From NCBI GenBank assembly GCA_016214445.1, contig JACROM010000109.1, positions 1 to 10,783 of the forward strand: DNA of 10,783 bases, given 5' to 3'. A program made the position numbers and the translations under genes. This DNA is from Microcaldota archaeon. GTDB lineage: Archaea; Micrarchaeota; Micrarchaeia; Norongarragalinales; Norongarragalinaceae. The notes below the pieces were generated by a model. The model was not told the DNA's origin. It worked only from the letters and a program-made list of their open reading frames with translations, and made no database searches. Of this stretch, positions 795 through 9,383 are shown in pieces; position 1 is the stretch's first letter, and each line of letters begins with the position of its first letter.

Positions 795-856
795 CTCCGG
801 CGGGCAAAAAGTTGTTTTGCGCCGGGATGGCAGAACGGTAACGCGCAGCCCTGGAA

Positions 857-904
857 CTTATTGTAGGTTGCCTTGAAAAATCAGGCGTACCTTCTGAAGT
901 GGAA
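857..904 (+). other. tRNA-Ser anticodon-loop intron (37/38)
   Basis: This 48-nt intron sits at the canonical archaeal site. It folds into one hairpin (AGGT...ACCT and GCCT...AGGC arms around 868-892). The central helix between loop bases 32-35 (CTGG) and 899-902 (GTGG) is imperfect, so the BHB is of the relaxed type. Confidence 0.8.
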
Positions 905-936
905 AGGCTGTGGCCGCAAGGCCTTCTGAGTTCGAA

Positions 937-1234
937 GGGTCATCTTTTCTTTTTCCAAAAAGATGCGAACAAAGCCTCAACGGCTTTGTAGCACATCGCA
1001 AAACGAAAGTTTTGCGTTGAAAGCTGGCCTGTCCAAAAGAAAAAGGATATTGACGAGCGAATCAAACGCGCTGGTCGTCCGCCAAAGAAAACTTGGCGGG
1101 TCCAAAAAGAGAAAACGCTCTTGAGGGCTTGGCCCAAAAGAAAACGATCTTGTGCACGAATAAAATTGTGCGGGTCCAAAATAAACGGTCTTGATTCGCG
1201 AATCGGGTCTTTGGAAGAAAACGTCAATAGGAAA
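937..1234 (+). other. tRNA-Ser T-loop intron (59/60), 298 nt, repeat-rich
   Basis: This intron interrupts the T-loop after TTCGAA (931-936); the exon resumes with T1235 and the 3' strand of the T-stem. It contains two 8-bp hairpins, 969-976/982-989 and 997-1004/1009-1016 (GAAA tetraloop), also found at 3723-3769 and 5826-5871. After these come several degenerate copies of a GTCCAAAAAGAAAACG-nTCTTG segment (about 1029, 1102, 1132 and 1173). The BHB central helix is imperfect: TTCG against AGGA. No protein is encoded. Confidence 0.85.
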
Positions 1235-1281
1235 TCTCAGTCCCGGCGTGTTTCTTTTTCATTAGATGAGGGTTGGTTCAA

Positions 1282-1866
1282 TTGGTAGACAAACCGGAAA
1301 AGCCTAAGCATGTGCCCCAGAAACAGGCAGCAAAAAAAACAGGAAAGGAAAAGGACAATTACCGCGGTATCGTAAGACTTGTAGGAAAGGACCTCTTGGG
1401 TCACTTGACAGTTAAACAGGGCCTAATGAGGATTCCGGGCGTAGGCCAGGTCTTGGCAGCGAACATGGCGCGCATAGTGGATACTAAAGTTGGCATTCAG
1501 TTTGATGAAATAGTGGGAAACCTCGACGACTCGCAGCTGAAGAAGATCGAGGAAGTGGTCAGGAACCCCCTGTCTTTCGGCATTCCCGCTCACATGTTGA
1601 ACAGGCCGATAGACCCTCTTGAAGGAACCCCTAAGCATCTAGTCATGGTGGATTTGGGTTTCGCGGTGAAGCAGGACATACAGCGGCACAGGGAGATACG
1701 TTCATACCGTGGCTGGAGGCACCAGATGGGCCAGAAGGTCAGAGGACAGCGCACCAGGTCAACCGGAAGAACCGGCATGACAGTTGGCGTGTTGAAGAAG
1801 GCCATGAAGGCCCAGGCTGCTGCCGCGTCAGCAGGTGCTCCGGCGAAGGAAGAAAAGAAGAAGTGA
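1282..1866 (+). CDS. rps13: 30S ribosomal protein uS13
   Basis: This small-subunit head protein contacts the P-site tRNA and the central bridge to the large subunit. Diagnostic motifs are RIPGVG (helix-hairpin-helix), the segment YRGWRHQMGQKVRGQRTRST and GRTGMTVGV. The preferred start is TTG 1282, giving 194 residues, because GAGGG (1268-1272) sits 9 bases upstream of it. An in-frame TTG at 1273 directly abuts that ribosome-binding site and is less likely. The protein exceeds the usual ~150-residue archaeal form through a Lys-rich N-terminus and an Ala/Lys-rich C-terminal tail, both low complexity. It is first in the uS13-uS4-uS11-rpoD gene string and is followed after 14 bases by uS4. Confidence 0.97.
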   Translation: MVDKPEKPKHVPQKQAAKKTGKEKDNYRGIVRLVGKDLLGHLTVKQGLMRIPGVGQVLAANMARIVDTKVGIQFDEIVGNLDDSQLKKIEEVVRNPLSFGIPAHMLNRPIDPLEGTPKHLVMVDLGFAVKQDIQRHREIRSYRGWRHQMGQKVRGQRTRSTGRTGMTVGVLKKAMKAQAAAASAGAPAKEEKKK

Positions 1867-1880
1867 GTTGACTTACAAAT

Positions 1881-2423
1881 ATGGGCGACCCGCGTAAGAA
1901 AAGGAAAACGTACGAGAAGCCGAAGAAGCTGTGGGACAAGCGCCGCATCGAGGAGGAGAAGGCTTTGAGGGAAGAGTTCGGGCTCAAGAACGCACGGGAA
2001 CTCTGGAAGATGCAGACCATCCTGAGGCGCGTCAGGCGCGAAGCGAGACGGCTGTTGTCCAAGAAGGGCGCGGACCTGGAGAGCAGGATGTCCCAGCTGC
2101 TTGGCAGGGTTAAGAAGCTGCTCCTCAAGAACGCTGAAGCTACAGCCGAAGATGTGCTCATGCTTACTACCAAGGACATCCTTTCGAGGAGGCTCGAGAC
2201 AGTCGTAGTGAGGAAGCATTTTGCGAGGACTTACAAACAAGCCAGGCAGTTCATAGTGCACGGCCACATTTCAGTTGACGGCAGCAAGGTCACGTCGCCG
2301 TCCTACCTGGTTTCGTTCGACGAGGAGGACAAGGTGGGCTGGTACAAGAGGCCGCTTGAATCCACTCCGCCGGAACCGAAGGCTGCAGCTTCCCCGGAAC
2401 CCAAGGTGAGTTTGAATGAGTGA
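1881..2423 (+). CDS. rps4: 30S ribosomal protein uS4
   Basis: This 180-residue protein binds 16S rRNA early in small-subunit assembly. The Lys/Arg-rich N-terminus (MGDPRKKRKTYEKP) is typical of archaeal uS4. The S4 RNA-binding domain is seen around residues 104-150 (RRLETVVVRKHFARTYKQAR then QFIVHGHISVDG and SYLVS). The C-terminal ~25 residues are a Pro/Ala/Glu-rich extension. The 3' end overlaps the uS11 start by 8 bases, indicating translational coupling. Confidence 0.97.
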   Translation: MGDPRKKRKTYEKPKKLWDKRRIEEEKALREEFGLKNARELWKMQTILRRVRREARRLLSKKGADLESRMSQLLGRVKKLLLKNAEATAEDVLMLTTKDILSRRLETVVVRKHFARTYKQARQFIVHGHISVDGSKVTSPSYLVSFDEEDKVGWYKRPLESTPPEPKAAASPEPKVSLNE

Positions 2424-8169: not shown

Positions 8170-9072
8170 ATGATTGAAAAAAGACCAGTAAGAGTTGTTT
8201 CCGTTTACGCCCGGGCAGGAACCCAGACGCATCTCCCTGGTGAGCCTGAAGACCGCGCGAGGGTTCTGGTTTTTCATCAGTTCGATGAACACCAAAAGCA
8301 TGGCTGCGGTTTTTTGGGGGCCTTCAATCGTGGCGGCCTGGAGGATTCGCTTAAACATTTTTGGGCAGAAATTAGGCATTTGAACATCGACCCTGAAAAA
8401 TACCTCGGGCTTACGCAGACACGAGTTAAGGAAATCCTTCATGACTTGGATGCTCCGAACGATGCCAGGGAGTACGCTGCCACCATCCGAACAGCAGCCG
8501 AAAAAAGCGGCCTTCCCACAATAATCGCAGTGCATGGCCACGCAGACGGTTCGGTACGAATTACTGGCGTGGCTAACCTCGGCAAGGCAAAAGGGCGTGA
8601 GGTCGCGGTAAGCACTTGCTCTGATGCGCGTTCGCCTCATGTAGTAGGGGATTTCGTTGCCAACGCCGTAATGAATGAAGGGAAGAATACTGGGCACGTG
8701 TTGTATCTTCCGGAAGACCTGAAAGCTCCCGACCCGCAAAAGCCCAGCCGCATGTCCATCCACCTTCCCGAACATTTGATTGTGAAAGAGAAGGGCGAGA
8801 CATTCAACATAACGCCGACTCTTGAACTCATGGGCGAAAATCCAAAAAACGAGTCTGAAATGCTTGACCAGTTGTTCGCCAAACTGTCATTCCTGTACGG
8901 GGCAACTCACTTCGGTCCCCTGGGCACAAATTCGGTAAGCCGAATAGTGGTGACCAACCCGCACTTGTATGAGAAATTCAAAAAAGAGATTGATTCTGCC
9001 TTGATAGATACGGAGAAAGGGTTCCCGATTCCCATAAAGTCGGTTCCCTTCAGGAGAGGCATCCATAAATAA
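8170..9072 (+). CDS. unrecognised protein with HGH and TCSDAR motifs
   Basis: The product is 300 residues from ATG 8170; ATG 8122 would add 16 basic residues, and the open frame further upstream is tRNA-Tyr intron. There is no signal peptide or membrane segment, so it is probably cytoplasmic. Two motifs at the ends of hydrophobic strands stand out: TIIAVHGHADGS (H122, H124) and, 26 residues later, EVAVSTCSDARSP (C150), then a helix (GDFVANAVMNEG). A His-Gly after one strand and a Cys after the next is the layout of clan CD (caspase-fold) peptidases, so a cysteine peptidase-like fold is possible. CSDxR also recalls beta-carbonic anhydrase, but its zinc ligands are in the wrong order. The C-terminus (FLYGATHFGPLGTNSVSRIV) is unassigned. 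Confidence 0.8.
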   Translation: MIEKRPVRVVSVYARAGTQTHLPGEPEDRARVLVFHQFDEHQKHGCGFLGAFNRGGLEDSLKHFWAEIRHLNIDPEKYLGLTQTRVKEILHDLDAPNDAREYAATIRTAAEKSGLPTIIAVHGHADGSVRITGVANLGKAKGREVAVSTCSDARSPHVVGDFVANAVMNEGKNTGHVLYLPEDLKAPDPQKPSRMSIHLPEHLIVKEKGETFNITPTLELMGENPKNESEMLDQLFAKLSFLYGATHFGPLGTNSVSRIVVTNPHLYEKFKKEIDSALIDTEKGFPIPIKSVPFRRGIHK

Positions 9073-9074
9073 GC

Positions 9075-9083
9075 CTTTTAAGG
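9075..9083 (+). promoter_or_regulatory. TATA box of tRNA-Asp
   Basis: CTTTTAAGG lies 25 bases upstream of the tRNA, inside a small inverted repeat (GCCTT-tt-AAGGC, 9073-9084) that follows the preceding stop codon. Confidence 0.5.
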
Positions 9084-9145
9084 CAGCTGAAGCAAAGTAT
9101 TTTCCGAAGCCTTGATGGTGTAGTGGTTAGCATTCAAGCTTGTCG

Positions 9146-9264
9146 GGCCGAAACTTTTCTTTCTTTTGCAAAAAGAAAGAAAACTTTCATGAAAAGAAAG
9201 AAAAGTTAAAAGTCGGTCGTCCCAAAAGAAGAAATCTCGTTTGTGACGTACCGATGGTACAAAC
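9146..9264 (+). other. tRNA-Asp anticodon-loop intron (37/38), 119 nt
   Basis: This is a textbook BHB: TTGT (9140-9143) pairs with ACAA (9259-9262), 5' bulge CG|G, 3' bulge AC|A, and inner helix GCCG/TGGT. The body has two A/T-rich inverted arms (AACTTTTCTTTC.../...GAAAGAAAAGTT) and then a TCCCAAAAGAAGAAATC segment like those in other introns. Confidence 0.9.
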
Positions 9265-9285
9265 AGCTTGCGACCCGGGTTCGAC

Positions 9286-9369
9286 AGACCACCTTTTCTT
9301 TCAAAAGAAAAGGCGGTCGTCCCTAAAGAAACGCGTTTGCGCGCGAATCTGATGGGGCGTTTCCGAAAA
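9286..9369 (+). other. tRNA-Asp T-loop intron (59/60), 84 nt
   Basis: BHB: TTCG (9280-9283) pairs with CGAA (9364-9367), bulges AC|A and AA|T. It starts with the minimal form of the shared hairpin, GACCaCCTTTTCTTT against AAAGAAAAGGcGGTC (9287-9317), then GTCCCTAAAGAAACGCG and a GCGCGAAT segment. This may be the smallest complete unit of the repeat family. Confidence 0.9.
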
Positions 9370-9383
9370 TCCCGGCCAAGGCG

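What the first reader, a model, noticed from the sequence alone, without database searches (positions are those of the whole stretch)
821..9383. Every tRNA gene in the window has a T-loop intron at position 59/60
Ser, Leu, Pro, Tyr and Asp tRNAs all break off after T-loop base 59, and the T-stem 3' strand plus acceptor strand reappear 41-298 nt later. In Leu, Pro, Tyr and Asp, T-loop bases 54-57 (TTCA or TTCG) pair perfectly with TGAA or CGAA at the intron 3' end, leaving two 3-nt bulges. This is the BHB geometry of the archaeal splicing endonuclease. T-loop introns are known from some archaea, chiefly Thermoproteales, but five of five unrelated isoacceptors at one identical site suggests a systematic process.
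Basis: partly seen in the sequence, partly recalled or inferred. Interest (0 to 1): 0.95.

Follow-up and report, generated by a model that had tools for sequence, protein, structure and literature searches.

The report
Archaeal introner hairpins in tRNA genes
In this uncultivated micrarchaeon all five tRNA genes of the window, and 17 of 27 tRNA genes located in its genome, are interrupted at the same spot by an insert predicted to be spliced out, and most of these inserts start with a hairpin of one repeat family, which likely behaves as a small mobile element.

Summary
All five tRNA genes (Ser-GGA, Leu-GAG, Pro-UGG, Tyr, Asp) break after nucleotide 59 and resume at 60 after 298, 204, 41, 226 and 84 nt; four also carry an anticodon-loop intron. 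The host is a Micrarchaeota MAG. Genome-wide, 17 of 27 located tRNA genes have a 59/60 insert. In 36 such inserts (own and relatives), bases 54-57 pair 4/4 (G-U allowed) with the predicted partner in 26; 74 of 3,556 other intron 4-mers do. The genome encodes a full-length homologue of ARMAN-2's broad-specificity epsilon-2 splicing endonuclease. So these are bulge-helix-bulge introns; splicing is predicted, not shown. New: 14 of the 17 inserts begin with one hairpin family. Model R1 finds it at 39 places here (a lower bound): 21 inside tRNA genes, 7 beside them, 3 in rRNA genes, 8 at protein-coding frames. Nine of 15 tested non-intron copies abut a duplicated piece of the target; none of 22 tested intron copies does. 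At Ser and Leu the site is older than the element: syntenic relatives have short element-free introns. Best reading: introner-like growth and spread of archaeal introns by an insertion element whose enzyme is unknown.

The parts
821..1249 (+). tRNA-Ser(GGA) gene; exons about 821-855, 903-936, 1235-1248; anticodon-loop intron about 856-902
   Evidence: spliced by hand; ARAGORN reads Ser(gga) for some junction choices only; automatic alignment scored 0.28, below the null maximum 0.32
937..1234 (+). T-loop (59/60) intron of Ser, 298 nt, begins with element hairpin GGTCATC...GCTGGCC
3662..3682 (+). upstream copy of leader plus first 12 nt of tRNA-Leu, followed by an element-like hairpin from 3686
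   Evidence: exact 21-nt repeat with 3933-3953
3942..4231 (+). tRNA-Leu(GAG) gene, exons 3942-4012 and 4217-4231 (last base belongs to the trailer)
4013..4216 (+). T-loop intron of Leu, 204 nt; hairpin element at the 5' end (4014-4062) and a reverse-oriented related one at the 3' end
5753..6043 (+). tRNA-Pro(UGG) gene; anticodon-loop intron 5792-5966 with element
5988..6028 (+). T-loop intron of Pro, 41 nt, no element, folds as BHB
7626..8066 (+). tRNA-Tyr gene; anticodon-loop intron about 7662-7801
7826..8051 (+). T-loop intron of Tyr, 226 nt; element at 7827-7879 and a reverse-oriented one at the 3' end
9109..9383 (+). tRNA-Asp gene; anticodon-loop intron 9146-9264 with element-like hairpin (weak R1 match, E 0.005)
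9286..9369 (+). T-loop intron of Asp, 84 nt, element at 9287-9332

Best explanation
The inserts at position 59/60 have the structure of bulge-helix-bulge introns, are predicted to be cut out by the archaeon's epsilon-2-type splicing endonuclease, and most of them begin with copies of one dispersed hairpin element that likely spread by insertion into tRNA and rRNA genes. Shown: joined as predicted, 22 of 23 genes tested are read as tRNAs; bases 54-57 covary with the intron 3' end; the hairpin covaries internally, and exactly one nucleotide separates it from base 59 in 10 of 11 R1-detected T-loop copies; the endonuclease gene is present; further copies sit in 16S and 23S rRNA genes and beside tRNA genes and protein-coding frames, many next to duplicated target pieces. 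Inferred: splicing takes place; the element moves; copies in structural-RNA genes persist because they can be spliced, and copies at protein-coding frames persist because an intact copy is left. At Ser-GGA and Leu-GAG the intron site is older than the element, so there the element likely enlarged an existing intron; for Tyr, Asp, Gln-UUG, Ala-CGC, Leu-CAG, Leu-UAG, Met and one Arg (probably CCU) the same isoacceptor of relative G001 has an uninterrupted T-loop, so gain is likely.
For: Spliced alignment of own loci to tRNAs of G001/G007. ARAGORN reads 22 of 23 spliced genes (two of the 22 without a clear anticodon; window Ser and L005 not in the set), 7 of 23 unspliced with anticodon introns allowed, 6 of 23 in a reversed-sequence control. 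36 T-loop introns (16 own, 20 relatives): 4/4 pairs in 26, control 74 of 3,556; base 57 against its partner, table 12,1/2,7, Fisher p=0.0015. MFE contains T-stem and central helix in 18 of 36, in 11 of 720 with shuffled introns. Hairpin covariation in 14 copies that I chose: 92.7% paired cells, 7 pairs changed on both sides, both above all 500 shuffles. R1: 63 matches at 39 places in the own genome. 50 of 60 R1 loci of relatives match a tRNA above the highest reversed-control score, 30 with the element inside the aligned gene, 20 outside. Target duplication abutting the hairpin: own intron copies 0 of 22, own other copies 9 of 15, relatives 21 of 60, control 1 of 97. Elements inside LSU and SSU matches. 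EndA: 385 aa, collinear with 4fz2 over 7-385, E 8.6e-131. Uninterrupted T-loops in G001. RF00005 matches at E<=0.001: own 5, ten same-family genomes 15-37.
Against: No RNA data; splicing is not shown. 10 of 36 T-loop introns do not pair 4/4, and 18 of 36 do not show T-stem plus central helix in the MFE. Short element-free 59/60 introns in syntenic Ser and Leu of four of four relatives examined (L013-L016) show that site and presumed splicing predate the element there. Three of 17 own T-loop introns have no element. Intron copies show no target duplication. One of the five covariation measures (further pair types, 10 against a shuffled mean of 12.2) does not exceed the shuffles. No enzyme found: no Y1 transposase match in the own genome, no reverse transcriptase in 20 genomes. 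The proposed tail motif is weak (6 of 37 own, 6 of 60 relatives). The reversed ARAGORN control is not empty.
Confidence: 0.7

Rival explanations
1. Ordinary noncanonical BHB tRNA introns; the hairpins are unrelated REP-like repeats that accumulated inside introns already there and have no role in making them.
For: Short element-free 59/60 introns in syntenic Ser and Leu of L013-L016; three own T-loop introns without element; element copies also at protein-coding frames.
Against: Exactly one nucleotide separates base 59 and the hairpin in 10 of 11 R1-detected T-loop copies (sequences), a register that random insertion into an intron would not give; eight isoacceptors have an uninterrupted T-loop in G001.
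Confidence: 0.25
2. Site-specific integration remnants: an integrase-borne element used tRNA genes as att sites and left tRNA fragments and hairpins, as proposed for Caldiarchaeum.
For: tRNA-end duplications next to hairpins, the Leu 5' copy in the window, the model in PMC3293823 (abstract and first part of the Discussion seen).
Against: By their length the copies have no room for an integrase (no integrase search was run); the same duplications occur at protein-coding frames; 30 of 60 relatives' copies lie inside the aligned tRNA gene.
Confidence: 0.08
3. Broken tRNA genes: insertions inactivated them and intact copies do the work.
For: ARAGORN and Rfam do not see the window's genes; the assembly is 72% complete.
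Against: No intact copy assigned to the five isoacceptors among the RF00005 hits; T-stem and acceptor halves remain complementary; base 57 covaries with the intron end.
Confidence: 0.03
4. Assembly or binning artefact from hairpin repeats.
For: The genome is a 140-contig MAG.
Against: Similar arrangements in several relatives' genomes and R1 matches in 38 of 196 genomes of the class, own included.
Confidence: 0.01

Closest known systems
Noncanonical BHB tRNA introns of archaea, including position 59/60 (review PMC4090602, passages seen)
   Same: Position, BHB pairing, several introns in one tRNA
   Different: Here 17 of 27 located genes have the 59/60 insert and 14 of those inserts begin with one hairpin family
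[quoted passage not shown] known through passages of PMC4090602 and PMC4033280)
   Same: Similar introns in different isoacceptors, mechanism unknown
   Different: Different phylum; the repeated part also sits in rRNA genes and at protein-coding frames, many with duplicated target pieces
Multiple-intron tRNAs and epsilon-2 endonuclease of ARMAN-1/2 (PMC4033280, PMC6379350, PMC12397907, passages seen)
   Same: ARMAN-2 is Micrarchaeum (same phylum), same enzyme type
   Different: The passages seen describe no shared intron element in ARMAN
Integration model of tRNA disruption, Caldiarchaeum (PMC3293823, abstract and first part of Discussion)
   Same: tRNA fragment upstream of a disrupted tRNA, repeated insert
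   Different: 1.8-kb recombinase-bearing insert there; short noncoding hairpin elements here
Introner elements of eukaryotes (recalled; only a search listing seen)
   Same: A repeated element that makes many introns
   Different: Spliceosomal introns of mRNA genes, not endonuclease-spliced tRNA/rRNA introns

Membership tests
Archaeal BHB tRNA intron | Exons join into an uninterrupted tRNA | tested here: met
   22 of 23 spliced genes recognised, 6 of 23 in the reversed control; alignments
Archaeal BHB tRNA intron | Bulge-helix-bulge at the junctions | tested here: met
   26 of 36 with 4/4 central pairs (G-U allowed), control 74 of 3,556; 10 of 36 without; MFE shows it in 18 of 36
Archaeal BHB tRNA intron | Excised by splicing endonuclease and exons ligated | not testable with these tools
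   no RNA data; endonuclease gene present
Thermoproteales-type transposed tRNA introns | Similar intron sequence in different isoacceptors | tested here: met
   R1 family in 11 own T-loop introns of different genes and 10 other tRNA-intron places
Thermoproteales-type transposed tRNA introns | Copies confined to tRNA genes (my wording; the original paper was not read) | tested here: not met
   3 of 39 own places in rRNA genes, 8 at protein-coding frames
MITE/REP-like mobile repeat | Short dispersed noncoding repeat with covarying hairpin | tested here: met
MITE/REP-like mobile repeat | Target-site duplication | tested here: inconclusive
   9 of 15 own non-intron copies, 0 of 22 own intron copies, 21 of 60 relatives' loci, control 1 of 97; aligned lengths 13 to 97, the longest including tails of older elements
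REP element moved by a Y1 (RAYT) transposase | Y1 transposase in the genome | tested here: not met
   0 matches in own genome; 4 of 20 genomes have any; own genome incomplete
Group I/II self-splicing intron | Ribozyme core in the intron | tested here: not met
   no Rfam intron family in the window; the three weak matches, all below cut-off, are to other families
tRNA-att integrative element | Integrase gene between the att copies | tested here: not met
   the two Leu copies in the window start 271 nt apart, with a hairpin between; read for length, no integrase search run

The most novel reading that the evidence does not exclude
An archaeal introner: a short hairpin element that inserts at the loops of structural-RNA genes and becomes a bulge-helix-bulge intron in place, creating tRNA and rRNA introns in bulk in several families of Micrarchaeota, while at protein-coding frames the same element inserts with a copy of the target so that the gene survives.
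Probability: 0.4. Interest if true: 0.92.

Novelty: new variant of a known kind. Interest (0 to 1): 0.78.

Why it matters
How archaea gain tRNA introns is an open question: a review passage seen here (PMC4090602) calls the mechanism of intron transposition still unknown. This lineage offers occupied and empty sites in related genomes, a recognisable repeat, copies outside tRNA genes and an enzyme with a solved homologue, so the question becomes testable. It also shows that two standard tRNA searches miss most of the located tRNA genes of this genome (RF00005 over cut-off: 5 of 27).

Tried and rejected
Self-splicing introns: no Rfam match in the window. A Y1 transposase or reverse transcriptase as mobiliser: none in the own genome. 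IS200/IS605-like insertion after a fixed target motif: left flanks of copies outside T-loops share no motif that I could see (by eye). A conserved tail TWGn(1-6)KGCGDATY: only 6 of 37 own and 6 of 60 relatives' sites (0 on reversed sequence), kept as a hint only. My early idea that T-loops of G001 are all intact was wrong: RF00005 and ARAGORN see only intact ones, and spliced alignment showed T-loop introns at Ser and Leu in L013-L016 (L013 carries the same Tyr gene as G001). Dropped before the count of 27: L112, whose best alignment (0.34 with seven gaps) was judged spurious. Kept though weak: L005 (alignment not credible, counted for its RF00005 match over cut-off), L093 (0.37; not read by ARAGORN after splicing) and window Ser (0.28, below the null maximum 0.32; spliced by hand).

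Literature: searches listed no paper that I recognised as reporting a 59/60 intron expansion or such an element in Micrarchaeota; only titles and abstract starts of the listings were seen, apart from the passages cited. Fujishima 2010 and 2011 and Sugahara 2008 did not come up in these listings and were not read.
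Full report
What the window is. The 10,783 bases are part of contig C95 (16.3 kb) of a 1.29-Mb, 140-contig, 72%-complete genome. Its closest uS11 relatives in genome contigs are Micrarchaeota MAGs (L013-L016, 73-82% identical in the best segment, which may leave out the own record). Pfam names uS13, an S4-domain protein in the place of uS4, uS11, RNA polymerase D, uL13, uS9 and RNA polymerase N; the ORF in the place of eL18 gave no Pfam match and is named by position and recall only.

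The observation. Ser-GGA, Leu-GAG, Pro-UGG, Tyr and Asp each stop after T-loop base 59 and resume at base 60 after 298, 204, 41, 226 and 84 nt. ARAGORN and Rfam see no tRNA in the window. Ser, Pro, Tyr and Asp also have anticodon-loop introns. Leu has an exact 21-nt copy of its leader and first 12 nt at 3662-3682, followed by a hairpin from 3686, 271 nt upstream of the copy at 3933-3953.

Genome-wide. RF00005 finds 5 matches at E<=0.001 in this genome and 15-37 in ten same-family genomes of 69-90% completeness. I aligned own loci to mature tRNAs of G001 and G007 with introns allowed (null maximum 0.32 in 732 reversed alignments). Of 26 targets one (L112) was dropped as spurious; two more genes (Cys on C10, Leu on C89) were read by eye, making 27. 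Two of the 27 are weakly supported by the alignment (L005, L093) and window Ser was spliced by hand. Seventeen of the 27 have a 59/60 insert. The ten without are Thr-UGU, Lys-UUU, Pro-CGG, Ala-UGC, the Ser-like L005, a Gly gene (L007), Arg-UCU, Ile-GAU, Glu-UUC (inserts in the D-loop and at 53/54) and Cys. ARAGORN reads 22 of 23 spliced genes tested (window Ser and L005 not in this set; L093 failed, L102 and L104 had no clear anticodon), against 7 of 23 unspliced and 6 of 23 from the same procedure on reversed sequence.

Splice geometry. For 16 own and 20 relatives' T-loop introns (the relatives' loci with score 0.35 or more and an insert in the T-loop), the four bases before the 3-nt bulge pair 4/4, G-U allowed, with T54-R57 in 26 of 36; 74 of 3,556 four-base windows inside the same introns do. 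Among the 25 ending in xGAA, R57=A goes with T 12 times and C once, R57=G with C 7 times and T twice (Fisher p=0.0015); three with A or G at that place are outside the table. The exceptions include Ser genes ending in AGGA in three genomes (own, G015, G028). The MFE shows T-stem plus central helix in 18 of 36 and in 11 of 720 shuffled introns; window Leu and Ser are among those that do not show it. The genome encodes a 385-aa endonuclease collinear with ARMAN-2 (4fz2, E 8.6e-131) over 7-385. In that alignment the YGTYK segment around the ARMAN-specific loop, and the Y, H and K that I take for the catalytic triad, are kept (matched by eye to the residues named in PMC6379350 and PMC12397907 passages).

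The repeated element. Introns of different tRNAs share a hairpin, GRCCAYC-TTTTCTTT...AAAGAAAA-GCTGGYC followed by GGTCC-like and A-rich sequence. In 14 chosen copies (13 distinct) 92.7% of cells pair and 7 of 15 pairs change on both sides, above all 500 shuffles and all slid versions; one of five measures, further pair types, does not exceed the shuffles. A covariance model (R1) gives 63 matches at E<=0.1 at 39 places in the genome, a lower bound because 150 of 1,564 first-look candidates were scored. I place 11 in T-loop introns, 10 in other tRNA introns, 3 in rRNA genes, 7 beside tRNA genes and 8 at or near the ends of protein-coding frames; contexts were read, the protein frames by eye without a family search. 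The rRNA placement is supported by Rfam LSU and SSU matches running across the elements on L135 and L292. Three more T-loop introns (Ser, Ile-UAU, Leu on C85) carry longer variants that R1 misses, so 14 of 17 begin with the element. One nucleotide separates base 59 and the hairpin in 10 of the 11 R1-detected T-loop copies; in Met none does (sequences). Leu and Tyr have an outward-facing related hairpin at the other end too.

Relatives. R1 matches 22 of 39 genomes at E<=0.001 and 38 of 196 in the class at E<=1e-4 with stricter filters; both counts include the own genome, and both are lower bounds, since 150 and 30 candidates per genome were scored. I looked at 60 relatives' loci: seven (L162-L168) were chosen because tRNA hits lay near, the other 53 were picked from the list without knowledge of their context, not exhausting it. 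Fifty of 60 (43 of those 53) have a tRNA alignment above the highest reversed control, 0.28: 30 with the element between the ends of the aligned gene and 20 outside it. Of the 20, 19 lie within 172 nt; in L168 the best alignment is 1,278 nt away, but ARAGORN reports a Ser gene next to the element. R1 counts and tRNA hits per completeness are negatively correlated over 39 genomes (rho -0.59; -0.55 without own); this is partly expected if the element interrupts the genes.

Two kinds of insertion. I compared the sequence just before each hairpin with the sequence after it (37 of the 39 own places and 60 relatives' loci; thresholds of score 13 and 15 nt set by me). A duplication ending within 15 nt of the hairpin occurs at 0 of 22 own intron copies, 9 of 15 other own copies, 21 of 60 relatives' loci, and 1 of 97 mismatched pairs. 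Crossing for the relatives: 0 of 30 copies inside a tRNA gene, 15 of 20 beside one, 6 of 10 without a tRNA. In most cases read, the piece next to the hairpin is truncated and an intact gene lies beyond the element; L247, L249 and L280 look the other way round, with the tRNA before the hairpin and the copy after it. Clear cases are Thr (28 nt exact) and three tandem starts of one protein-coding frame on C95.

Age of the site. At the syntenic Ser and Leu genes, relatives L013-L016 (four of four examined) have 59/60 introns of 36-57 and 23-50 nt without the element. In L014 and L015 Leu, TTCA/TGAA complementarity with 3-nt bulges is plain to the eye, although the MFE leaves those four pairs open. 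In contrast Tyr, Asp, Gln-UUG, Ala-CGC, Leu-CAG, Leu-UAG, Met and Arg-CCU have uninterrupted T-loops in G001 (matched to own genes by isoacceptor, the own Arg on C27 only probably CCU). So the element likely enlarged some introns and made others. Because RF00005 and ARAGORN see only intact T-loops, interrupted genes in relatives are undercounted.

What is known. Position 59/60 and multi-intron tRNAs are described (PMC4090602 passages; PMC4033280 passages), as are broad-specificity endonucleases of ARMAN-2 (PMC6379350 and PMC12397907 passages). PMC3218864 (passages) gives over 70 tRNA introns in Pyrobaculum calidifontis, so a heavy intron load alone is not new. Transposition of similar introns in Thermoproteales is reported with unknown mechanism (through review passages; original not read). 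A tRNA fragment upstream of a disrupted tRNA was linked to integration in Caldiarchaeum (PMC3293823, abstract and first part of the Discussion). New here, as far as the listed searches show, is one repeat family that joins T-loop introns, rRNA insertions and gene-end insertions.

What remains open. Splicing, the moving enzyme and the order of events are inferred. No Y1 transposase was found in the own genome and no reverse transcriptase in 20 genomes. The RNA ligase and integrases were not searched for.

Noticed in passing
window 4013-4216 and 7826-8051: Leu and Tyr T-loop introns carry related hairpins in inverted orientation at both ends, close to both splice-site halves, giving very stable folds (z -7.4 and -11.0).
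   Followed up: partly
L289 (G000 C95:14500-16332), about 600-1050: The start of one protein-coding frame is present three times in tandem, each earlier copy truncated and followed by an element; the longest aligned duplication is 97 columns.
   Followed up: partly
L135 1501-1553 and L292 522-570: Element copies inside 23S and 16S rRNA genes, possibly rRNA introns.
   Followed up: partly
G013, G032, G039: Micrarchaeal relatives 90-97% complete with only 3, 9 and 9 Rfam tRNA matches: other lineages whose tRNAs may be heavily interrupted; G032 has one R1 match.
   Followed up: no
window 937-1234; L269; L279: Ser T-loop introns in three genomes end in AGGA instead of CGAA, a shared exception to the pairing rule.
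   Followed up: no
L095: tRNA-Ile read with anticodon UAU after splicing, with T-loop and anticodon-loop introns.
   Followed up: no
window 580-730: Palindrome-like repeats (GAGCGTAGCG plus stem-loop type) upstream of tRNA-Ser; similar ones near other tRNAs; read by eye.
   Followed up: no
window 127-525, minus strand: PIN-domain protein next to tRNA-Ser (Pfam PIN_2, E 5.5e-27).
   Followed up: no
L244, L247, L249, L250, L265, L280: In these relatives' loci the hairpin starts 1-2 nt after the 3' end of the aligned tRNA.
   Followed up: no
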